DNA from: Candidatus Competibacteraceae bacterium
GTDB taxonomy: Bacteria; Pseudomonadota; Gammaproteobacteria; Competibacterales; Competibacteraceae
DNA length: 64,000 nt
Direction: 5' to 3'
NCBI GenBank assembly: GCA_003989075.1
Contig: RXIX01000004.1
Span: 1-64,000 of the forward strand
Below, in pieces: positions 33,729-55,690 of the stretch (the stretch's first letter is position 1; every line of letters begins with the position of its first letter). Made by a program: the position numbers and the translations under genes. Below the pieces are notes generated by a model. The model had not been told where the DNA came from. It saw only the letters and a program-made list of their open reading frames with translations, and made no database searches.

Positions 33729-33814
33729 TGGTGCTGGTGGTGGGACTCGAACCCACAAGGCCGCGAGGCCGCAGGATTTTAAGTCCTGTGTGTATACCAT
33801 TCCACCACACCAGC
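33729..33814 (-). tRNA. leuZ: tRNA-Leu (anticodon TAA)
   Basis: 86 bases with CCA encoded. Acceptor GCTGGTG/CACCAGC, anticodon stem CAGGA/TCCTG around loop CTTAAAA, a long variable arm (CGGCCTCGCGGCCTT) as in class II tRNAs, and T arm GGGTTCGAGTCCC. Third in the Gly-Cys-Leu cluster downstream of pgsA, the same order as glyW-cysT-leuZ of E. coli. Confidence 0.96.
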
Positions 33815-33828
33815 GAAGGGATGATATT

Positions 33829-33902
33829 TGGAGGCTAGGGTCGGAATCGAACCGGCGTCCACGGCTTTGCAGGCCGCTGCATGACCACTCTGCCACCTAG
33901 CC
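33829..33902 (-). tRNA. cysT: tRNA-Cys (anticodon GCA)
   Basis: 74 bases with TCCA at the 3' end. Acceptor GGCTAGG/CCTAGCC, anticodon stem GCGGC/GCCGT around CTGCAAA, T arm CCGGTTCGATTCC. Sits 14 bases from tRNA-Leu(TAA) and 73 from tRNA-Gly, likely one transcript with pgsA. Confidence 0.96.
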
Positions 33903-33975
33903 AAAACCCGCAGATGTCCCGGCAGGCACCGGAGACATAAAAAAGCCCCGAAGAACTTCGAGGCTCGATAATTCT

Positions 33976-34051
<76 letters not shown>

Positions 34052-34114
34052 TGCGAAGACCTGCTATTCTAGCGGCAAAAGCCATGCTGTCAAGCATGGT
34101 CGCCAATTTTTTTA

Positions 34115-34672
34115 TCAGCCGTCCCGGAGCACCGGCCATGCCGCCGCCAGATAGTGCAGCATTGACCACAGCGTCAGCGCCGCCGCCGCCAGCATCAAGG
34201 CCAGACCCACTTCCAGGGTCGGAAACCCGAACAGCGGCTCCCGATACAGCAGCAACAGCACGGCGACCATTTGCACCGTAGTCTTAAGCTTGCCGATTTT
34301 CGACACTGCGACCCGGCTATGACTGCCCACCTGCGCCATCCACTCACGCAAGGCTGAAATGGCGATTTCCCGGCCAACAATGATGGTTGCTGCCACCGCC
34401 ATCAGCGGCGTGTGAATCGCCTGCACCAGCAGCACCAGCGCCGCCGCCACCATCAGCTTGTCGGCGACCGGATCGAGAAAGGCGCCAAAGGCCGAGGTCT
34501 GGCCAAGACGCCGCGCCAGATAACCGTCCAGCCAGTCGGTCAGCGCCGCCAGACCAAACAGGGCGCTGCACAGCAGATTGGCACCGCGAAAGGGCATGAA
34601 GAAAACACCCACAAATACCGGGATCAGCGCGATCCGCAACAGGGTCAGCCAGGTGGGTAGATTCAGTTGCAT
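34115..34672 (-). CDS. pgsA: CDP-diacylglycerol-glycerol-3-phosphate 3-phosphatidyltransferase
   Basis: Commits CDP-diacylglycerol to phosphatidylglycerol synthesis in the inner membrane. 185 residues, about six helices. The CDP-alcohol phosphotransferase signature is complete: DWLDGYLARRLGQTSAFGAFLDPVADK spans it, with its three aspartates in DGxxAR...G...D...D order. Start ATG 34670-34672 gives MQLNLPTWLTLLRI, matching relatives; the ORF extends 21 codons into uvrC but that is unsupported. The ribosome site is weak. Confidence 0.95.
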   Translation of the reverse strand: MQLNLPTWLTLLRIALIPVFVGVFFMPFRGANLLCSALFGLAALTDWLDGYLARRLGQTSAFGAFLDPVADKLMVAAALVLLVQAIHTPLMAVAATIIVGREIAISALREWMAQVGSHSRVAVSKIGKLKTTVQMVAVLLLLYREPLFGFPTLEVGLALMLAAAALTLWSMLHYLAAAWPVLRDG

Positions 34673-34685
34673 GATCTGAACACGA

Positions 34686-36518
34686 TCAACCATCGCCATG
34701 GAAGGCATCATAAATGCGCTGCGCCAGTTCAGCACTGATCCCCTCTATCCGGGCCAGATCATCGACGCCCGCCCGCGAGAGCTGCTTAAGCCCGCCAAAC
34801 TGCCTGAGCAGCGCCTGGCGACGCTTGGGACCAATACCGGGAATGTTTTCGAGCGCCGAGGTCTTGCGGCTGACCATGCGCCGCTGACGGTGGCCGGTGA
34901 TCGCAAAGCGGTGCGCTTCATCGCGAATCTGCTGGATCAGGTGCAAGGCGGCCGAACTGGCAGGCAGTATAAGTGGATGGTCCTGACCGGACAAGTAAAG
35001 TGTCTCCAGCCCCGGTTTGCGCTCTGGACCCTTGGCAACACCGAGCAGGGTCACGCCGGTAACGCCGCGCGCATCCAGAACTGCACGCGCCTGCGCCAAC
35101 TGTCCGCGGCCACCGTCGATCAGCACGACATCGGGCATCACCATGCCCTCTTCGCCCAGGCGCGCATAGCGCCGCTCCAATGCCTGATGCAGAGCGGCGT
35201 AATCATCACCGGGCGTAATGCCCATAATCGCATAGCGCCGATAAGCGGCTTTCAACGCGCCTTCCGTACCAAACACCACGCAGGAGGCTATCGTAGCCTC
35301 GCCACCCAGATGGCTGATATCGAAGCATTCCAGACGCGCCGGCGCTGCAGCCAGACCGAGCACCCCGGCCAGAGCAATCAGACGCTGGCGCATGCCGGCC
35401 TGACTGGATAGGCGGGCTTCCAGTGCATGCTCGGCATTACGCTGCGCCATCTCCAGCCAGCGCGCGCGCTCGCCGCGCACCCGTCCACTGAGCACCACAC
35501 GCCGCCCCAGCCGGGCCTGAAACGCCTCGGCCAACAGCGCCAGATCGGCAGGTTCGGGTGTTACCAGCAGTTCAGCCGGCACCGCCCGGTCGAGATAATG
35601 CTGGGCCAGGAACGCTGCCAGAACCGTTTTCGCTCCGACGTCATCATCCTCTTCCTCTGCGGGCAGGCGCGGAAAAAAGGCCTTGTTGCCCAGCAGGCGG
35701 CCTTCGCGGAACATGAACACCTGTACGCAGGCTACCCCGGCCCGCAGCACGCAGGCGACTACATCAAGATCGCCGCTGACGCCTTCCACATGCTGACGCT
35801 CCTGCACCTGACGCAGTTCGGCGATGCGGTCACGACATTGGGCCGCCTCTTCGAAGCGCAGCGCCGTCGCCGCCTGCTCCATACGCTGCACCAGGTCATC
35901 GATGATCTGAGCGCTGCGTCCCTCCAGAAAGCGCTCGGCATCGTCAAGCTGGCGCTGGTAGGCGGCGCGATCGACATAGCCGACGCAGGGCGCGGTACAG
36001 CGCTGGATCTGGTACTGCAGACAGGGCCGGCTGCGACCCCGGAAGAAGGCATCCTCACAGGAACGCAGCCGGAACAGCTTCTGCAGCAGATTCAGCGTAT
36101 CGCGAACCGCGCTGGCGTGCGGATAGGGGCCAAAGTAACGCCCCGGCGCTCGCCGCGCGCCACGATGCAGTTCCAGGCGCGGAAAGTCGCCCGCGGCAAC
36201 ATGGATATACGGATAGCCCTTATCGTCGCGCAACAGCACGTTATAGCGTGGCTGCAGGCGCTTGATCAGCGTGCTTTCCAGAATCAGCGCCTCGGCCTCG
36301 GTATGGGTCACGGTGATTTCGATAGCGTGAATCCGGGCCACCAGACTGCGGGTCCGCGCTGAGGCATGGTGCTCGCGGAAATAGCTGGCGACCCGCTGGC
36401 GCAGATTGCGCGCCTTGCCGACGTACAGCACCGTGCCCTGCGCATCAAGCATCCGGTATACGCCGGGCAGGGTGGTAAGCGTCCTGAGGAAGCGCTGCGC
36501 ATCAAAAGGTTCCGTCAT
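34686..36518 (-). CDS. uvrC: Excinuclease ABC subunit C
   Basis: Makes both incisions in nucleotide excision repair. 610 residues. N-terminal GIY-YIG nuclease (PGVYRMLDAQGTVLYVGKARNLRQRV), cysteine-containing RPCLQYQIQRCTAPCVG, UVR motif for UvrB contact around residues 200-235, RNase-H-like second nuclease (ECFDISHLGG...VLIDGGRGQL), and tandem helix-hairpin-helix at the end (ENIPGIGPKRRQALL; IEGISAELAQRI). The ATG at 36516-36518 (MTEPFDAQRFL) fits relatives; an ATG seven codons earlier is possible. It is followed by pgsA 13 bases later. Confidence 0.95.
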   Translation of the reverse strand: MTEPFDAQRFLRTLTTLPGVYRMLDAQGTVLYVGKARNLRQRVASYFREHHASARTRSLVARIHAIEITVTHTEAEALILESTLIKRLQPRYNVLLRDDKGYPYIHVAAGDFPRLELHRGARRAPGRYFGPYPHASAVRDTLNLLQKLFRLRSCEDAFFRGRSRPCLQYQIQRCTAPCVGYVDRAAYQRQLDDAERFLEGRSAQIIDDLVQRMEQAATALRFEEAAQCRDRIAELRQVQERQHVEGVSGDLDVVACVLRAGVACVQVFMFREGRLLGNKAFFPRLPAEEEDDDVGAKTVLAAFLAQHYLDRAVPAELLVTPEPADLALLAEAFQARLGRRVVLSGRVRGERARWLEMAQRNAEHALEARLSSQAGMRQRLIALAGVLGLAAAPARLECFDISHLGGEATIASCVVFGTEGALKAAYRRYAIMGITPGDDYAALHQALERRYARLGEEGMVMPDVVLIDGGRGQLAQARAVLDARGVTGVTLLGVAKGPERKPGLETLYLSGQDHPLILPASSAALHLIQQIRDEAHRFAITGHRQRRMVSRKTSALENIPGIGPKRRQALLRQFGGLKQLSRAGVDDLARIEGISAELAQRIYDAFHGDG

Positions 36519-36538
36519 GGCATTCACCGGCGCGGCCA

Positions 36539-36565
36539 TTGACCTGCTCGCGCCTGTTCTAGAAT
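36539..36565 (+). promoter_or_regulatory. Possible promoter of the CNBD-ZIP gene
   Basis: TTGACC at 36539-36544 and TAGAAT at 36560-36565 resemble -35 and -10 boxes, but the spacer is only 15 bases, shorter than the best 17. About 65 bases upstream of the start codon, in the gap divergent from uvrC. Confidence 0.3.
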
Positions 36566-36632
36566 GGAAATGGATGATCCGTACATACCTTAACCCTCGG
36601 CGCCGCGCCTGCAACTTCTGACACTGCATGCC

Positions 36633-37961
36633 ATGAGCTTCGACCCGACCCGTGTTTTCGGCGCTATCCTGCTGGCGGTGCTGGCCATGCTGTCGCTGCT
36701 GGCCGGCGCGGCCATTGGTCTGTTGCGCACGCCGGCGCCGCGCAGCACCGCGATTATCATGGCTTTTGGCACCGGGGCGCTCATCCAGGCCCTGGCGATG
36801 GAACTGGCCTTTGAAAGCGCGCAGCGGCTGCTGCATGAGGCCGGTCTGAGTGGCCTGAGTAGCTGGCTGTGGGTGGCGTTCGGCTTTACCGTGGGCGGGG
36901 TGCTGTATTCACTTGGCGACCGCCATCTGGAGCATTATGGCGCTGCCCTGCGCCACCCGGCGCTGGCCCGGCTGTATCTGCAGCGCCAGAAGCATGCGCA
37001 ATCCGCCGAACGGCTGGCGCAGCTGGCGCGGGTTGAATTGCTGCGCGCCCTGCCACCCGAGGAGATGGAAGGCGTGCTGCTCTGCGTCGAGCCGCTGCGG
37101 GTCAGTGCGGGCACGGTGATCTTCCGGCAGGGCGAGGCCGGTGATGCGCTCTATCTGATCGACGAGGGCGCAGTGCGCGTGCTGGACGCACCCGAGGCCA
37201 CGCCCGACGCCAGCGAACTGGCCCAGCTTGGCACGGGGCAATCATTCGGCGAGATCGCCCTGCTGACCGGTGCGCCGCGCACCGCAACCGTGGTGGCGCT
37301 GTGCGACAGCGTGCTGCTGAAAATCGCCCGCGAGCCGTTCGTGGAACTGCTGGACTGCTCGCCGCGCCTGCGCCAGGCGGTCGAAACGCTCAATTCGCAG
37401 CGCATCCTGCAGAACGTCGTCCGCCGCCACGATGCACCCGATGCCGAAAGCTGGCAGCAGATCGCCCTGGCCAATCTGCAGCGTCTGAGCCATGCCGAGG
37501 AAACCGCGCTGATGACCCGGCAGGCCTCGGCGGGCGCGCCGCTGGCCCTGTTTCTTGGCGCGATGCTGGACGGCATTCCCGAATCCGTGGTGATCGGCTC
37601 GACCTTCGAATCGCTGGCACAGTTCCGCTTTACCTTCCTGGTGGCGGTGTTTCTGTCCAATCTGCCCGAGGCGATCGCGAGCGCCGCCGGGATGAAGCGG
37701 GCCGGTTTCAGCACGCGGCGCATTGCCACCCTCTGGGGCCTGCTGGTGATCGCGGGTGCGCTGGCGGCGGCGCTGGGCAACCTGTTTCTGGTTGATGCTT
37801 CGCCCATGCTGCTGACCCTGGTCAGCGCCATTGCCGGCGGCGGCATCCTGGCCATGGTGGCCTCGGTGATGATGCCGGAGGCCTATGTTGACGGGGGTCC
37901 GGCGGTTGGACTGGCGACCATTGCCGGTTTCCTGTGCGCGTTTCTCTTCACCCTGGTCTGA
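36633..37961 (+). CDS. ZIP-type metal transporter with an inserted cyclic-nucleotide-binding domain
   Basis: 442 residues in three parts. Residues 8-97 hold three membrane helices; 135-245 are a CNBD/CAP-type domain with the phosphate-binding cassette FGEIALLTGAPRTATV (205-220, R216 the expected phosphate contact); 300-442 hold about five helices with ZIP-like sites DGIPES (313-318), NLPEAIAS (343-350) and MPEA. The histidines of canonical ZIP helices IV and V (HNxPEG) are replaced by Asp and Ser here. The CNBD thus occupies the long cytoplasmic loop after TM3, which in other ZIP proteins is a metal-sensing loop. Inferred: metal flux gated by cyclic nucleotide. Metal and nucleotide are unknown. 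Confidence 0.82.
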   Translation: MSFDPTRVFGAILLAVLAMLSLLAGAAIGLLRTPAPRSTAIIMAFGTGALIQALAMELAFESAQRLLHEAGLSGLSSWLWVAFGFTVGGVLYSLGDRHLEHYGAALRHPALARLYLQRQKHAQSAERLAQLARVELLRALPPEEMEGVLLCVEPLRVSAGTVIFRQGEAGDALYLIDEGAVRVLDAPEATPDASELAQLGTGQSFGEIALLTGAPRTATVVALCDSVLLKIAREPFVELLDCSPRLRQAVETLNSQRILQNVVRRHDAPDAESWQQIALANLQRLSHAEETALMTRQASAGAPLALFLGAMLDGIPESVVIGSTFESLAQFRFTFLVAVFLSNLPEAIASAAGMKRAGFSTRRIATLWGLLVIAGALAAALGNLFLVDASPMLLTLVSAIAGGGILAMVASVMMPEAYVDGGPAVGLATIAGFLCAFLFTLV

Positions 37962-37988: not shown

Positions 37989-40082
37989 CTAGCGCCCCGC
38001 ACCCGATGCTGCCGGATGGGCTGCCCGCCAGGCACGCCCCAGTTGTCGCGCCTGTTCCATCTCAGCCTGACTCAGGCGACTGGCGGCGTAATCGAGCGGC
38101 TGCGCTGCATCCACATAACCGCTGGTAACCGCCAGATCCAGCCACATATAAGCCTTGACCCAGTTGCCTGCGACCCCGCGCCCGCTGCTGTAGAACAGGC
38201 CCAGTCCGTACTGCGCCAGCGGCAGGCCGCTCTCGGCAGCCTTCTCAAACCAGCGGAAGGCTTCGCGATCATCACGGGCCACACCGCGCCCACTCGCATA
38301 CGCCACCCCGAGCAGCACCTCGGCCAGTGCCAGACCCTGGCCGGCAGCCTTGCGATACCAGTTCACCGCCTGGGCATCATCGCGCGCCAGCCGGCCGCGC
38401 CCATCGGCGTACATCACGCCCAGATTGAGCTGCGCGCCAGCCAGACCGTGCTCGGCAGCCTTGCGATACCAGTTCACCGCCTGGGCGTCATCGCGCGCCA
38501 CGCCGCGCCCGGTCGCGTACAGTACGCCCAGACTGAACTCGGCCTCGGCATCGCCCTGGGCGGCGGCCTTTTCAAACCAGCCAAACGCCGCGCGTTCATC
38601 GCGCGCCGTGCCATCACCCGCCATGTACAGCGCGCCCAGGCGCGTCTGGCTGGCGGCGTGACCGTGCTCGGCAGCCTTGCGATACCAGTTCACCGCCTGG
38701 GCGCTGTCCCGCGCGCCGAGCGCACCCCGGTCGTAGACCAGCCCCAGCCGGTACTGCGCGCCGACATCATCCTGCTCGGCGGCCTTGCGCAGCCATTCCA
38801 GCCCGGCCTGCGGATTGCGCGCGACACCCTCGCCGCTGAAATAGCGCTCGGCCAGCTGCATCTGCGCCTGCGGATTGCCGCCAGTCGCCGCCTGATTAAG
38901 GAGCTGCATGCCGCGCACCGGATCAAGCACCACGCCGCGCCCGCTCAGATAGCCATTGGCCAGTTCCAGTTGCGCCACTGCCAGTTCCTGTTCAGCGGCG
39001 CGCCGGTACCATTGCAGCGCTTCGCGCTCATCGCGCGGCAGACCGCCACGCCCCTCCGCATACATGCGCCCAAGGGCATACTGCGCCAGCGCCAGCCCGG
39101 TTTCGGCAGCCTGTCGATACCAGCGCACCGCCTCACTGTCATTGCGGGCAGTGCCCTGCCCCTCGGCATACAGCCGCCCGAGGTTGAACTGCGCCAGGGC
39201 CACACCCTGCCCGGCCGACTGGCGAAACCAGCGGAACGCCTCAGCCGGATTGGCTGCCAAGCCGCGTCCGAGCAGAGCGCGCAGCGCCAGATTGTACTGC
39301 GCCTCGGCATGTCCCTGCTCGGCGGCCTGGCGATACCAGCGCACTGCTTCGGCATCACTGGCTGTGACCCCGCGCCCAGCGGCATACATCGCGCCCAAGC
39401 CGAACTGGGCAGCGGCCAGGCCCTGGCGCGCCGATCGTTCGTACCACTCCACCGCGACTTTGTCGTTGCGTGATACGCCGCGACCGCTGGCGTAAAAGTT
39501 GCCCAGTTCAAACTGAGCGCCAGGATGATTTTGCTGCGCGGCACGCTGATACCAGTTAGCGGCCTCCCGATCATCCTGCGCCATGCCCTGACCGCTGGCA
39601 TATTTGCCGCCGAGTGTATACTGGGCTTCGGGATTGCCCCGCTCGGCGGACAGTCGCAGCCAGAACAGTGCCTCGCGTTCGCTGGGTGCCGCGCCCGGAT
39701 CGGCGGCATAGATCATGCCGAGATGAAACTGGGCATCGCCATTGCCCTGGGAGGCAGCCCGGCGCAACCACTCCAGGGCGTTGCGCTGGCTTTGCGTCAC
39801 CCCCTGACCACGCAGATACATCAGGCCGATCATGGTCTGCGCACCGGGATCGCCCTGCTTGGCCCAGACCATGTAGTCCTCGAAGGCCCGGGCATAATCA
39901 CCGCGCTGATAAGCCTCGGCGGCGCTGTTCGTGGAGGCATTGGGGGCAACGGGGCGAAAGTCACCGTAATGCCAGATGCCCTTGTCATCCTGCCATTTTT
40001 TCACACCACTGCCGTTCTCGGCGGGCGGTGCAGCCTGTACCACGCCCGCCAACAGCATTGCCCACCACACCATCTTGCGCAT
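37989..40082 (-). CDS. Exported Sel1-repeat protein, 16 repeats, with N-terminal DUF4124-like segment
   Basis: 697 residues from the ATG at 40080-40082 with GGGGGA upstream. A signal peptide (MRKMVWWAMLLAGVVQA) is followed by a DUF4124-like piece (KKWQDDKGIWHYGDF) and then 16 Sel1-like units of about 36 residues, each with the pattern AQ..LG..Y..G.G...D...A..WY.KAA..G. A final helical segment ends the protein. Sel1 proteins are alpha-solenoid scaffolds for protein contacts, often in signalling, envelope stress or secretion. Several repeats are nearly identical at the DNA level (32-44 bases), pointing to recent duplication. Convergent with the CNBD-ZIP gene, divergent from terZ. Confidence 0.88.
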   Translation of the reverse strand: MRKMVWWAMLLAGVVQAAPPAENGSGVKKWQDDKGIWHYGDFRPVAPNASTNSAAEAYQRGDYARAFEDYMVWAKQGDPGAQTMIGLMYLRGQGVTQSQRNALEWLRRAASQGNGDAQFHLGMIYAADPGAAPSEREALFWLRLSAERGNPEAQYTLGGKYASGQGMAQDDREAANWYQRAAQQNHPGAQFELGNFYASGRGVSRNDKVAVEWYERSARQGLAAAQFGLGAMYAAGRGVTASDAEAVRWYRQAAEQGHAEAQYNLALRALLGRGLAANPAEAFRWFRQSAGQGVALAQFNLGRLYAEGQGTARNDSEAVRWYRQAAETGLALAQYALGRMYAEGRGGLPRDEREALQWYRRAAEQELAVAQLELANGYLSGRGVVLDPVRGMQLLNQAATGGNPQAQMQLAERYFSGEGVARNPQAGLEWLRKAAEQDDVGAQYRLGLVYDRGALGARDSAQAVNWYRKAAEHGHAASQTRLGALYMAGDGTARDERAAFGWFEKAAAQGDAEAEFSLGVLYATGRGVARDDAQAVNWYRKAAEHGLAGAQLNLGVMYADGRGRLARDDAQAVNWYRKAAGQGLALAEVLLGVAYASGRGVARDDREAFRWFEKAAESGLPLAQYGLGLFYSSGRGVAGNWVKAYMWLDLAVTSGYVDAAQPLDYAASRLSQAEMEQARQLGRAWRAAHPAASGAGR
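38344..38703 (-). repeat. Near-identical DNA repeats inside the Sel1 gene
   Basis: A 32-base block is identical at 38344-38375, 38455-38486 and 38671-38702, spaced 111 and 216 bases (37 and 72 codons). The second and third copies agree over 44 bases (38444-38487 and 38660-38703). They encode NWYRKAAxxG with the same codons, which indicates recent unit duplication or gene conversion. Confidence 0.85.
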
Positions 40083-40251
40083 ACCGCTTTCCCCCAAGTC
40101 GCGCCGGGACATCTTGAATTTCTGTAAACAGTCTCAATTCTAATGATAAGCAGCGCAGCCGTCGCGACTACCCGGTCGTGCCCGCACCGTATCCAAAGCG
40201 GACGCGCGTGTACACCATAAGACACCACCACTCATTGCAGAGGATTTCCGC
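40083..40251. promoter_or_regulatory. Divergent intergenic region of the Sel1 gene and terZ
   Basis: 169 bases with an AT-rich island at about 40110-40152 in otherwise GC-rich DNA, the most likely site of the ter and sel1 promoters. TTGAAT near 40113 and TCTAAT near 40137 could be boxes but the spacing is too long for confidence. A GAGGATT ribosome site precedes terZ. Confidence 0.35.
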
Positions 40252-40854
40252 ATGGCCATCAATCTCCAGAAGGGACAACGTATCAGCTTGGACAAGGAAG
40301 CCGGCCGGCGTCTGAATCGGGTCGTCATGGGCCTCGGTTGGGGCATGAAGCAGGTGCAGAGCCGCGGTTTCCTCGGCTTTGGCAGCGGTACGCGCCAGGA
40401 AGCGGTTGACCTGGATGCCTCCTGCCTGCTGTTCGACGGCAATGGCCAGCTCACGGATACCGTCTGGTTTCGACAACTGCGCAGCCAATGCGGCTCCATC
40501 CAGCACAGCGGCGATGACCGCTCGGGCGGGGGCGAAGCCGGTGCTGATAACGAGCGCATCGCCATCGAACTGGATCGGATTCCGCCGACCGTGCAGGTGC
40601 TGCTGTTCACGGTCAACAGCTTCAGCGGCGAGAGCTTCGCCGGTATTCCCAATGCCTTCTGCCGCCTGGTGGATGCGGCCAATGGCAGCGAGATCGCCCG
40701 CTTCGATCTGTCCCTGGAAGGCGGCCAGCATACCGGCCTGATCATGGCCAAGCTGTATCGCCATAACAGCGAGTGGAAGATGCAGGCCATCGGCGAGCAT
40801 GCCGAGGGACGCACCTTCCACGACCTGTTGCCCGCGCTGCGCCCCTACCTGTAA
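40252..40854 (+). CDS. terZ: TerD-family protein TerZ
   Basis: 200 residues, first gene of the ter operon. Closest to TerZ: it keeps the insertion GFLGFGSGT before VDLDASCLLFD, then DTVWFRQL, CGSIQHSGDDRSGGG and a C-terminal AIGEHAEGRTFHDL, all features of TerZ rather than TerD/E. The acidic residues DLDAS and the GDD site are those that bind Ca2+ in TerD. Members confer tellurite, phage and colicin resistance and are linked to membrane stress. Nineteen bases separate it from terA. Confidence 0.9.
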   Translation: MAINLQKGQRISLDKEAGRRLNRVVMGLGWGMKQVQSRGFLGFGSGTRQEAVDLDASCLLFDGNGQLTDTVWFRQLRSQCGSIQHSGDDRSGGGEAGADNERIAIELDRIPPTVQVLLFTVNSFSGESFAGIPNAFCRLVDAANGSEIARFDLSLEGGQHTGLIMAKLYRHNSEWKMQAIGEHAEGRTFHDLLPALRPYL

Positions 40855-40873
40855 GCGACGCAGGCTTTTGGTC

Positions 40874-42094
40874 ATGGATCTACAAGCGGGTCAGAACATC
40901 TCCATTTCCAGGCACAGCCCGGCACCGGCCGCCATCACCGTCGCGCTGGCCTGGGAACCGGCCACTACGGCGCTGACCCTGGATGCCAATGCCTTTGCCC
41001 TGGCAGCCTCGGGCAAGGTGCGTGGTGATGCCGATTTCATCTTCTACAATCAGCCAACACTGCCCGGCGGCGGTATCCAGCGGGCCGGGGATGGGCGCAG
41101 CTTCACCATCACTTTTGCCGCCCTGCCCGCTGGCATTGAACACATCGTGATCGCCCTGACCATCGATCAGGGCCAGCGCCGCGGCCAGTCGTTTGGACAA
41201 CTGACGCAGGTACGCACCGAGATCCGCGACGCGCAGACTCAGGCTGTGCTGGCGGCGTTTCCGCTGGCGACGCGCATGATGGCGGAAACCGCGCTGATCA
41301 TTGGCGAACTGTATCTGCGCAACGGTGAATGGAAATTCCGTGCCGTCGGCCAGGGTTTCGTCGGCGGACTGGCACCGCTGGCCCGGCAATACGGCGTTGA
41401 GGTCGCGGATGATCCGGATGTCGCTGCGCCAGCTGCACCACCAGCAGCGCCGCCCAGCGCCGCGCCATCAGCCAAGCCGCTGCGCCTGGAAAAAATCACC
41501 CTGGAAAAAAAGGGCAGCAGCATTTCGCTGGAGAAGAAAGGCGCCGGCTTCGATGAACTGGTCATCAATCTGAACTGGAACCAGGGCAGCGCCAAAAGCG
41601 GCGGCTTCTTCGGCCGGCTGACCGGCAGCGGCAGAGTGGATCTTGATCTCGGTTGCCTGTTCAAGCTGCGCGATGGCCGCGCCGGTGCCGTGCAGGCGCT
41701 CGGCGACAGCTTCGGCAGCCTGCAACAGCCGCCCTATATCCAATTAATGGGCGATGACCGCAGCGGCGCCAGCGCCGAGGGCGAATTCCTGCGCATCAAC
41801 GGCCGCGAATGGGCGCACATCGACCGGATCGTGGTCTTTGCTCTGATCTATCAGGGCGCGCCCAACTGGGCGGAAACCGATGCCGTGGTCACCCTGCGCA
41901 CGCCCCATCAGCCGACCCTGGAAATCCGCCTGGACAGCCATCGCAATGACCAGCGTATGTGCGCGCTGGCCATGCTGGAGAACCAGAGCGGCAACATCAG
42001 GGTCACAAAGCTGGTTGAATATTTCGCCGATCACCGCGTCCTCGATCAAGCCTATGGCTTCGGCCTGCGCTGGGTCGCCGGCTCCAAGGGTTAG
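40874..42094 (+). CDS. terA: Tellurium resistance protein TerA
   Basis: 406 residues with two TerD-like halves joined by an Ala/Pro/Ser-rich linker (about 180-200). The first half opens MDLQAGQNISISRH and ends GGLAPLARQYGVEV; the second begins LRLEKITLEKKGSSISLEKK and contains VDLDLGCLFKLRDG, QLMGDDRSG and DSHRNDQRMCAL, characteristic of TerA. The calcium-type acidic residues are weaker in the first half. The start is the ATG at 40874; the longer frame reads back into terZ. Confidence 0.9.
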   Translation: MDLQAGQNISISRHSPAPAAITVALAWEPATTALTLDANAFALAASGKVRGDADFIFYNQPTLPGGGIQRAGDGRSFTITFAALPAGIEHIVIALTIDQGQRRGQSFGQLTQVRTEIRDAQTQAVLAAFPLATRMMAETALIIGELYLRNGEWKFRAVGQGFVGGLAPLARQYGVEVADDPDVAAPAAPPAAPPSAAPSAKPLRLEKITLEKKGSSISLEKKGAGFDELVINLNWNQGSAKSGGFFGRLTGSGRVDLDLGCLFKLRDGRAGAVQALGDSFGSLQQPPYIQLMGDDRSGASAEGEFLRINGREWAHIDRIVVFALIYQGAPNWAETDAVVTLRTPHQPTLEIRLDSHRNDQRMCALAMLENQSGNIRVTKLVEYFADHRVLDQAYGFGLRWVAGSKG

Positions 42095-53909: not shown

Positions 53910-54431
53910 ATGACCCTGACTTTCGCGCATTACGAGCGCTGCATCGACACGGTGCGGGCGCGGCATCCGGATATGCCCCAGCAGGCGGTGGTGCTGATGC
54001 GGCTGGCCCATCATGTGTTCCGGGCGCTGCATGAGCAGCTCGATGGTTTCTTCGCTGCACATGATTTATCCACCTCAGCCTGGGCGGTACTGATAATGAT
54101 TTACAGCATGCCGGACCGGACCATCACACCTTCGGAGGTCAGCGCAGCCGTGGTGCAATCACGCACCCACATGACCCGCGTTGCTGATGATCTGGTCGCG
54201 GCGGGCCTGATCGAACGGGCCAGCGACAGCAGCGATCGGCGGCGTGTGGTGCTGCGCTTGACGGCACAGGGCGTGGCCCGCATCGAACAGCTGTTACCGC
54301 TGACCTGGACCGCATACACAGCGGCGCTGGCTGCCTTTTCAGCCGATGAAACCGCCCAGCTCGAAACCCTGCTGCGCCGCTGGCTGGCGCATCTGGAGCA
54401 GCGTCCGACGAGCGGAGATCCGCAGCGATGA
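53910..54431 (+). CDS. MarR-family transcriptional regulator of the emrAB operon
   Basis: 173 residues with a winged-helix DNA-binding domain (about 60-135): ITPSEVSAAVVQSRTHMTRVADDLVAAGLIERASDSSDRRRVVLRLT, whose recognition helix and wing are typical. Start at the ATG 53910; the frame can be read further upstream but crosses the operator. Predicted repressor released by a small hydrophobic or phenolic ligand. Its stop overlaps the emrA start (ATGA), so it is in the same transcript. Confidence 0.9.
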   Translation: MTLTFAHYERCIDTVRARHPDMPQQAVVLMRLAHHVFRALHEQLDGFFAAHDLSTSAWAVLIMIYSMPDRTITPSEVSAAVVQSRTHMTRVADDLVAAGLIERASDSSDRRRVVLRLTAQGVARIEQLLPLTWTAYTAALAAFSADETAQLETLLRRWLAHLEQRPTSGDPQR

Positions 54432-55690
54432 GCGCACAACCGCAGGACACTGTTCCCGCGACTCCAAACGGCAGGCGTCGCCGCGCGCTGCTCATCCTGG
54501 CCACCCTGTTCACCCTGCTCGCCAGCGGCGGCGGCTATTACTGGTTTTACTACGGACGCTGGCAGGTCACCACCGACAATGCCTATGTCGGCGGCAATGT
54601 GGTTCAGATCACACCGCAGATCGCCGGCACCGTGGTCCGCGTGCTGGCCGATGACACTGATCTGGTTGAACAGGGCCAGCCGCTGGTACAGCTTGACGAC
54701 GCCGACGCTCAGGTGCAATTGCAACTGGCGGAAGCCAATCTGGCCGACGCAGTGCGCGCGGTGCGCGGCCTGTACGCCAATGACAATCAATCACGCGCCC
54801 AGATCGCCCAGCGCAGCGCCGATCTTGATCGTATCCGCTTCGAAGCCGAGCGCGCCGAGACCGCCGCCCGTCAGGCCCGTGACGAATACCAGCGGCGCGA
54901 GATGCTGTTCCAGAAGAAATTCATTTCCAGCGAAACCCTGCAGACCGCGCGCACCGCGCTCGATAGCGCCAGCGCCGCGCGCGATGCCGCTCAGGCAGCG
55001 GTTGAACAGGCCCAGGCCGCAGTGCGCGCCGCCCGCGAACAGCGTAGCGGCGCCGAAGTCCTGATCGATAACACCTCGGTCGAAACCCATCCCCGGGTCG
55101 CGGCCGCCGCGGCCAGGGTCAAGGAAGCCTTTCTGAATATCGCCCGCACCACCATCGTCGCTCCGCTGCGTGGCTATGTAGCCAAGCGCAGCGTCCAGAT
55201 CGGTGCACAAGTCGCGCCTGGCACGGCCCTGATGGCGGTGATCCCGCTCGGTGATCTGTGGGTGGATGCCAATTTCAAGGAAAGCGAACTGGAAAACGTG
55301 CGCATCGGGCAGCCGGTCACGCTGCGCGCCGATCTTTATGGCAGCGACGTGCACTACAGCGGGCGGATCGCCGGTCTGGCTGCGGGCACCGGCGGAACCT
55401 TTGCCCTGCTGCCGCCACAGAACGCCACCGGTAACTGGATCAAGATTGTGCAGCGGGTGCCGGTGCGCATCACCCTCGACCCGGTGACGGTAGCCGAACA
55501 CCCGCTGCGGATCGGCCTGTCGATGCGCGCCACTGTGGACACCCATCAGCGGGATGGCGACGTGCTCGCCCGCGAACCGAATCATGAGGCGCGCTACAGC
55601 ACACCGGTGTTCGCGGCGCAGGCGCAAGCCGCCGAGGCACGCATCGCCCGCATCATCGAGGCCAACCGGCGCGGCGGCGGCAAATCGTGA
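54428..55690 (+). CDS. emrA: EmrA-type membrane fusion protein (HlyD family)
   Basis: Periplasmic adaptor of a multidrug efflux pump. 420 residues: short cytoplasmic N-terminus, one membrane helix at about 21-41, biotinyl-lipoyl halves (TTDNAYVGGNVVQITPQIAGTV; TIVAPLRGYVAKRSVQIGAQV), a long coiled coil between them (about 115-215), and a beta-barrel (GDLWVDANFKESELENVRIGQPV). A four-base overlap with the EmrB start couples their translation. A TolC-type outer channel is not in the window. Confidence 0.92.
   Translation: MSAQPQDTVPATPNGRRRRALLILATLFTLLASGGGYYWFYYGRWQVTTDNAYVGGNVVQITPQIAGTVVRVLADDTDLVEQGQPLVQLDDADAQVQLQLAEANLADAVRAVRGLYANDNQSRAQIAQRSADLDRIRFEAERAETAARQARDEYQRREMLFQKKFISSETLQTARTALDSASAARDAAQAAVEQAQAAVRAAREQRSGAEVLIDNTSVETHPRVAAAAARVKEAFLNIARTTIVAPLRGYVAKRSVQIGAQVAPGTALMAVIPLGDLWVDANFKESELENVRIGQPVTLRADLYGSDVHYSGRIAGLAAGTGGTFALLPPQNATGNWIKIVQRVPVRITLDPVTVAEHPLRIGLSMRATVDTHQRDGDVLAREPNHEARYSTPVFAAQAQAAEARIARIIEANRRGGGKS

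What the first reader, a model, noticed from the sequence alone, without database searches (positions are those of the whole stretch)
36633..37961. ZIP metal transporter with a cyclic-nucleotide-binding domain in its middle loop
Residues 135-245 form a CAP-type domain with an intact phosphate-binding cassette (FGEIALLTGAPRTATV, R216), inserted between a three-helix N-terminal part and a five-helix C-terminal part with DGIPES and NLPEAIAS. In known ZIP proteins this loop senses metal. Here a nucleotide sensor sits instead, which would make metal transport directly gated by cAMP, cGMP or another nucleotide. The helix IV and V histidines of the ZIP metal site are Asp and Ser, so the transported ion may differ. 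It is the closest thing in the window to an undescribed functional unit.
Basis: partly seen in the sequence, partly recalled or inferred. Interest (0 to 1): 0.68.

Follow-up and report, generated by a model that had tools for sequence, protein, structure and literature searches.

The report
ZIP-like metal transporter with cyclic-nucleotide-binding domain
This is a bacterial membrane transporter of the zinc/iron (ZIP) kind in which the short cytoplasmic loop that normally senses metal has been replaced by an intact cAMP-type sensor domain, a conserved architecture that suggests, but does not prove, that a nucleotide messenger directly controls metal transport.

Summary
ORF 36633-37961 (+) encodes 442 residues: three predicted TM helices, a complete cyclic-nucleotide-binding domain (CNBD; Pfam E 9e-21) and five TM helices. 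It is no assembly artefact: 29 further intact homologues (46-74% identity) occur in Competibacteraceae, the likely host family, and in Bacteroidota/Ignavibacteriota. The closest relatives without the insert are 250-residue "ZIP family zinc transporters" (profile comparison E 1e-45), themselves related to GufA and E. coli ZupT. The CNBD sits exactly where those have a short TM3-TM4 loop, the metal sensor of BbZIP. On a tree of the membrane part all fused forms share one branch (99/99), consistent with one insertion. One-CNBD members always keep the phosphate-cassette Glu and Arg (33/33); a related branch has two CNBDs that lost them. The host encodes two class III cyclases with adenylate-type residues. 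Best reading: a ZIP-type divalent-metal carrier whose TM3-TM4 junction is controlled by cAMP or a similar nucleotide. Nucleotide binding, metal transport and gating are inferred. The Asp/Ser metal-site changes are real, but the Asp also occurs in plain relatives. I found no published description. New variant of a known kind.

The parts
36633..37961 (+). ORF of 442 aa, ZIP-like transporter with inserted CNBD (stop included)
36645..36725 (+). predicted TM helix 1 (residues 5-31)
   Evidence: AlphaFold2 model; hydropathy
36738..36839 (+). predicted TM helix 2 (helix 36-69; hydrophobic core 38-60)
36852..36932 (+). predicted TM helix 3 (residues 74-100)
36945..37022 (+). linker helix before the CNBD (residues 105-130; R107 and H108 invariant in 30 homologues)
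37023..37418 (+). cyclic-nucleotide-binding domain (residues 131-262)
   Evidence: PF00027 E 9.4e-21; PDB sequence matches 131-255; Foldseek top hits are PKA, MloK1, HCN and SthK CNBDs
37245..37292 (+). phosphate-binding cassette FGEIALLTGAPRTATV (205-220), with E207 (37251-37253) and R216 (37278-37280)
   Evidence: F205 G206 E207 A209 R216 A218 invariant in 30 of 30; R216 written with six different codons across the set
37419..37535 (+). linker from CNBD helix C to TM4 (residues 263-301; model confidence low at 275-288)
37539..37604 (+). predicted TM helix 4 (303-324) with D313, G314, P316, E317 (LDGIPES; equivalent to HNxPEG of GufA)
37629..37700 (+). predicted TM helix 5 (333-356) with S342, N343, P345, E346 (SNLPEA; equivalent to QDIPEG of GufA)
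37713..37790 (+). predicted TM helix 6 (361-386); the Glu of the GufA motif SGxxEP is not kept
37803..37871 (+). predicted TM helix 7 (391-413), followed by MMPEA
37896..37955 (+). predicted TM helix 8 (422-441)

Best explanation
The protein is a ZIP-type (elevator) divalent-metal carrier whose cytoplasmic TM3-TM4 loop has been replaced by a cyclic-nucleotide-binding domain. In BbZIP, TM3 belongs to the static scaffold and TM4 to the mobile transport domain, and the loop between them covers the cytoplasmic exit when it binds metal. Here a nucleotide, most likely cAMP, would bind the beta-roll through E207 and R216, move the CNBD's C-terminal helices and so change the position or freedom of TM4 relative to TM3, switching metal release or the elevator step. 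Shown: architecture, place of the insertion, conservation of the cassette, ancestry of the membrane part, presence of class III cyclases in the genome. Inferred: ligand identity, binding, divalent-metal transport, and the sign (activation or inhibition) of control.
For: CNBD and ZIP matches; 30/30 aligned homologues match PF00027 and 29/30 PF02535, best E 2e-9. Fused versus plain family: hhalign probability 100, E 1e-45, with the CNBD as a clean insertion between about residues 107 and 293. Plain family versus GufA-type ZIP and E. coli ZupT: probability 96 each, motifs in register; NCBIfam ZupT matches plain relatives down to E 5e-15. Cassette Glu and Arg invariant in 30/30 and in 3/3 sister proteins, while the tandem-CNBD branch has lost them; R216 uses six codons. 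The membrane part is under strong constraint (TM4-8 dN/dS about 0.06-0.11 in Competibacteraceae). The own genome has two class III cyclases, one CHASE2-linked and one FHA-linked; both have Lys at the base-selecting position, as adenylate cyclases do (residue reading from general knowledge). 17 of 18 fusion-bearing genomes tested have class III cyclases. TM3-TM4 loop as metal sensor in BbZIP: PMC10256678, PMC11549095; scaffold/transport division: PMC9873690. Precedent for a carrier controlled through a CNBD: SLC9C1 (PMC6052114).
Against: No biochemistry exists. The window protein alone is below Pfam's Zip cut-off, and ZIP structures are not found by sequence profile. The structure model has low inter-domain confidence (pTM 0.53), and a separate TM4-8 model was too poor to test the fold. 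The second metal site of BbZIP (N178, D208, E240) is not kept, and four Competibacter-type members have Ala at E317. Cyclases are common in related genomes without the fusion, so their presence is weak evidence. No neighbouring gene is conserved that would name the metal or the signal.
Confidence: 0.55

Rival explanations
1. The CNBD is a dimerisation or structural module that does not respond to nucleotides, as the CNBH domain of the CNNM magnesium transporters.
For: CNNM CNBH domains bind no cAMP or cGMP, dimerise and are needed for transport (PMC6940986). The related tandem-CNBD ZIPs have lost the cassette Glu and nearly always the Arg in both CNBDs, so a nucleotide-independent role probably exists in this very group.
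Against: CNNM domains lack precisely the Glu and Arg (PMC6940986) that are invariant here in 30/30 and 3/3 one-CNBD proteins; 6 of 8 key cassette positions are invariant where 22 of 132 CNBD positions are (hypergeometric P 2.5e-4).
Confidence: 0.15
2. The membrane part no longer works as a metal carrier; the protein is a membrane-bound nucleotide or metal receptor, or carries another substrate.
For: Divergent ZIP: below Pfam's cut-off, His of TM4 is Asp, second metal site not kept, E317 is Ala in the Competibacter-type subclade, one genome has only a remnant without TM1-3 and CNBD.
Against: Acidic D313, E346 and E416 are invariant and E317 is kept in 26/30; D313, E317, N343 and the PE after TM7 are shared with plain relatives named zinc transporters; TM4-8 is the most constrained part even in the E317A subclade (dN/dS 0.057). 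In BbZIP alanine at H177 is tolerated (PMC9278863).
Confidence: 0.2
3. The CNBD senses a different ligand (for example cGMP, c-di-GMP or another small molecule) rather than cAMP.
For: The residue after R216 is Thr or Ser in 26/30, a feature compatible with cGMP as well as cAMP; CNBD folds bind other ligands in some families (PMC2246266).
Against: The cassette matches the canonical cyclic-mononucleotide motif (PMC2246266); the two class III cyclases found in the own genome both carry the adenylate-type Lys.
Confidence: 0.15
4. Sequencing or assembly artefact, or chance fusion in one genome.
For: Most homologues come from metagenome assemblies.
Against: 29 intact homologues in independent assemblies across at least two phyla, low dN/dS, one clade.
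Confidence: 0.01

Closest known systems
Plain 'ZIP family zinc transporter' of about 250 aa (e.g. Deinococcus taeanensis WP_225523609.1)
   Same: Same 8-TM core with LDGIPES and SNLPEG motifs; 52% identical over TM4-8; direct homologue.
   Different: Short TM3-TM4 loop (HRKRSG type) instead of the CNBD; no sensor domain.
BbZIP / GufA-type ZIP, and E. coli ZupT
   Same: Homologous by profile comparison; TM4 and TM5 metal-site positions align (D313=H177, E317=E181, S342=Q207, E346=E211).
   Different: H177 is Asp, Q207 is Ser, second-site residues N178, D208 and E240 are Gly, Asn and Ala; the metal-sensing TM3-TM4 loop (PMC10256678) is replaced by a CNBD.
SLC9C1 sperm Na+/H+ exchanger
   Same: A secondary carrier with a CNBD that makes transport respond to cAMP (PMC6052114).
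   Different: Unrelated exchanger fold with a voltage sensor; CNBD not inserted between scaffold and transport domain of a ZIP.
CNNM/CorC magnesium transport mediators
   Same: Divalent-metal transport protein with a CNBD-like domain (PMC6940986).
   Different: Different membrane fold with CBS pair; the CNBH lacks the Glu and Arg and binds no cyclic nucleotide; here both are invariant.
Bacterial CNBD channels (MloK1, SthK, mechanosensitive channel-CNBD)
   Same: CNBD sequence and predicted fold are close to PKA, MloK1 and SthK domains.
   Different: Channels with the CNBD at the C-terminus; here a carrier with the CNBD in the middle.

Membership tests
ZIP family (PF02535, SLC39) | Significant match to the family profile | tested here: inconclusive
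   Window protein 19.3 bits, cut-off 35.1; 29/30 homologues match, best E 2e-9; own-genome plain relative passes the cut-off (36.4 bits); profile chain fused-plain-GufA/ZupT is strong.
ZIP family (PF02535, SLC39) | Eight TM helices with a variable cytoplasmic loop between TM3 and TM4 | tested here: met
   Model and hydropathy show 3+5 helices; most predicted cytoplasmic loops carry more Lys/Arg than the outer ones; the insert lies in the TM3-TM4 loop. Orientation itself is prediction.
ZIP family (PF02535, SLC39) | Metal-site motifs HNxPEG in TM4 and H/Q-N/D-x-PE in TM5 | tested here: inconclusive
   DGIPES and SNLPEA: Pro and Glu kept, His is Asp, Gln is Ser; the same variant is typical of the plain subfamily.
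ZIP family (PF02535, SLC39) | ZIP fold in three dimensions | tested here: inconclusive
   Foldseek's 50 listed matches for the whole model are all CNBDs; the TM4-8 model was of low confidence and matched nothing.
ZIP family (PF02535, SLC39) | Transport of divalent metal | not testable with these tools
   Needs an uptake assay.
Cyclic-nucleotide-binding domain (PF00027) | Profile match and beta-roll fold | tested here: met
   74 bits, cut-off 27.5; Foldseek E about 1e-8 to PKA, MloK1 and HCN CNBDs, TM-score to the isolated-domain targets about 0.8.
Cyclic-nucleotide-binding domain (PF00027) | Canonical phosphate-binding cassette FGE-x-AL...R with Glu and Arg | tested here: met
   FGEIALLTGAPRTATV; E207 and R216 invariant in 30/30.
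Cyclic-nucleotide-binding domain (PF00027) | Binding of a cyclic nucleotide | not testable with these tools
   Needs a binding assay.
CNNM/CorC family | DUF21 membrane domain and CBS pair before a CNBH domain | tested here: not met
   Pfam finds only cNMP_binding and Zip in the window protein; only 1 of 30 homologues shows a weak CNNM2 CNBH match.

The most novel reading that the evidence does not exclude
A class of ZIP-type metal carriers in which a second messenger directly gates the elevator, created once by replacing the built-in metal-sensor loop with a CNBD, which then split into a nucleotide-sensing branch (one CNBD, intact cassette) and a nucleotide-blind branch (two CNBDs, cassette lost).
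Probability: 0.4. Interest if true: 0.75.

Novelty: new variant of a known kind. Interest (0 to 1): 0.62.

Why it matters
Bacterial cyclic mononucleotides are known mainly to act on transcription factors and channels; direct control of a divalent-metal carrier by cAMP would link signalling to metal homeostasis post-translationally. It would also give a tool to test how the TM3-TM4 loop controls ZIP elevators, since a ligand-switchable domain sits exactly at the scaffold/transport-domain junction. The natural contrast between one-CNBD and tandem-CNBD proteins makes the question directly testable.

Tried and rejected
Viral contigs hold no relative; plasmid records hold only separate ZIP and CNBD relatives, none covering 80% of the query. 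Gene neighbourhood: no conserved partner beyond local synteny (RibD_C and AI-2E transporter in Competibacter; enoyl-CoA hydratase, MacB-type permease, creatininase in Bacteroidota). CRP-like palindromes in the window are not enriched and none lies upstream of the gene; no sigma-70-like promoter found. BbZIP could not be found by sequence profile in PDB. Foldseek against viral models gave nothing useful. Three long open frames from the phylum search (L074-L076) were checked and are plain ZIPs with over-long frames. Literature searches for a ZIP-CNBD fusion found none; a 2007 CNB census (PMC2246266) names no ZIP, and a 2023 review (PMC10710835) mentions CNBD fusions only with MFS transporters. 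Public domain-architecture databases could not be searched, so a listing there cannot be excluded.

Full report
What is there. The ORF at 36633-37961 (+) encodes 442 residues. It lies beside a divergent uvrC (34686-36836 as listed; its real start is probably near 36518) and converges with a Sel1-repeat gene (37989-40112). Pfam finds a CNBD at 156-240 (E 9.4e-21) and a weak Zip match at 300-417 (E 7e-4, below cut-off). An AlphaFold2 model from a 30-sequence alignment shows three long helices, a CNBD beta-roll with its cassette helix and following helices, and five more long helices. Confidence is moderate (pLDDT 74, pTM 0.53), so domain orientation should not be read from it. Foldseek matches of the CNBD are to PKA, MloK1, HCN and SthK domains.

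Is it real. A scan of species-representative genomes returned 34 loci. 29 encode intact or nearly intact fused proteins of 46-74% identity and were aligned with the window protein; of the rest, one is split between two frames, two are cut by contig ends, one is the remnant described below and one is an unrelated CNBD. They come from Competibacteraceae (Gammaproteobacteria) and from Bacteroidota/Ignavibacteriota. Within the host family 6 of 24 other genomes carry it in full, and one (G019) keeps only a remnant that has lost TM1-3, the CNBD and part of TM4. In 274 genomes sampled from the class, no other one-CNBD member appeared.

What the membrane part is. The nearest proteins without the insert are about 250 aa, annotated 'ZIP family zinc transporter' (Deinococcus, Rhizobium), and include a paralogue in the same genome (L002, G000:C141), which passes the Pfam Zip cut-off. 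The fused and plain families align over the whole membrane part with E 1e-45, the CNBD being a clean insertion between about residues 107 and 293. The plain family in turn aligns with a GufA-type ZIP (same motif type as BbZIP: HNLPEG, QDIPEG) and with E. coli ZupT at probability 96. In this register D313 corresponds to H177 of BbZIP, G314 to N178, E317 to E181, S342 to Q207, N343 to D208 and E346 to E211; the Glu of TM6 (E240) is Ala (BbZIP site residues from PMC9873690). So the main metal site survives as Asp-Glu-Ser-Glu and the second site does not. Because D313, E317 and N343 are shared with plain relatives, this site is older than the CNBD. D313, E346 and E416 are invariant in 30/30; E317 is Ala in four Competibacter-type proteins, which also have Ser for N343. 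In that subclade TM4-8 is nevertheless the most constrained part (dN/dS 0.057), so the protein is still under selection, perhaps with another substrate.

What the CNBD is. F205, G206, E207, A209, R216 and A218 of the phosphate-binding cassette are invariant in 30/30, and R216 is written with six different codons, so it is kept at the protein level. Glu and Arg are the ribose- and phosphate-binding residues of cAMP receptors (PMC2246266, PMC6940986), and their absence is part of the explanation why CNNM domains bind no nucleotide (PMC6940986). The residue after R216 is Thr or Ser in 26/30, which does not separate cAMP from cGMP.

Wider family. Searching with the class sample and the TM4-8 profile revealed two further fused groups. 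In Bacteroidota, three proteins (L083-L085; L083 and L084 nearly identical) have one CNBD with an intact cassette on a more distant ZIP core. L088 (Bacteroidota) and proteins in 14 of 63 genomes of the order of G216 (same class as the host, family f55) belong to a form with two CNBDs in the same loop. In the tandem form both CNBDs have lost the Glu and nearly always the Arg. On a maximum-likelihood tree of the membrane part with the CNBD columns left out, all 44 fused proteins are one side of a branch (99/99), and the fused/plain label needs one change. That is consistent with one insertion; long plain branches make the rooting uncertain. The Competibacteraceae proteins are nested among Bacteroidota/Ignavibacteriota sequences, which suggests horizontal transfer.

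Mechanism. In BbZIP TM3 belongs to the dimeric scaffold and TM4 to the moving transport domain, and metal release moves the cytoplasmic part of TM4 (PMC9873690). The loop joining them carries histidines that hold an egress-site metal and give negative feedback by intracellular zinc (PMC10256678, PMC11549095). Putting a CNBD there exchanges a metal sensor for a nucleotide sensor at the hinge between the two domains. The host genome has two class III cyclases (CHASE2-cyclase and cyclase-FHA), both with the adenylate-type Lys, and no class I cyclase; 17 of 18 genomes with the fusion have class III cyclases. I therefore favour cAMP as ligand. The sign of the effect and the metal are unknown. No conserved neighbour helps.

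Comparison with what is known. It works like SLC9C1, a carrier modulated by cAMP through a CNBD (PMC6052114), but is not related to it. It is not a CNNM-type protein. It is best called a divergent ZIP-family member by homology; the direct family test is inconclusive (below cut-off) and the fold was not confirmed. I found no published ZIP-CNBD fusion in the papers searchable here, but subscription literature and domain-architecture databases were not available.

Verdict. Observation confirmed; interpretation partly supported; a conserved, apparently undescribed architecture that makes a clear, testable claim. Interest 0.62; new variant of a known kind.

Noticed in passing
L073 (1483-3327, -), L088, L090-L100: ZIP proteins of about 615 aa with two tandem CNBDs in the TM3-TM4 loop, both without the cassette Glu and nearly always without the Arg: a probably nucleotide-blind sister group worth its own study.
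   Followed up: partly
L083-L085 (Bacteroidota): Second one-CNBD ZIP group with intact cassette (GEMALVTGAPRSAT) on a more distant ZIP core, close to the tandem group.
   Followed up: partly
L011 1483-1935 (-), genome G019: Remnant of the fused gene: TM1-3, CNBD and part of TM4 deleted, rest about 73% identical.
   Followed up: partly
L038-L041 ('Ca. Competibacter' and relatives): E317 of the metal site is Ala and N343 is Ser, yet TM4-8 has dN/dS of only 0.057.
   Followed up: partly
G003:C183 (L012, L103): A plain ZIP of the same subfamily lies beside, and divergent from, a GufA-type ZIP (HNLPEG/QDIPEG).
   Followed up: no
window 33729-34735: tRNA-Gly, -Cys and -Leu genes next to a pgsA-like gene and uvrC, an order also known from E. 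coli (from memory).
   Followed up: no
window 40799-42094: Protein with two TerD stretches near the ZIP gene.
   Followed up: no
window 37989-40112: 707-aa protein with 13 Sel1 repeats by Pfam, convergent with the ZIP gene.
   Followed up: no
window 54598-54613: Best CRP-type palindrome of the window (one mismatch) lies inside a membrane-fusion-protein-like gene (54428-55690), so probably chance.
   Followed up: partly
L069, L070 (Rhizobium, Azospirillum plasmids): CNBD matches of 30-36% identity on plasmids; in Azospirillum it lies in the C-terminal part of a cation:proton antiporter, another carrier-CNBD fusion.
   Followed up: no
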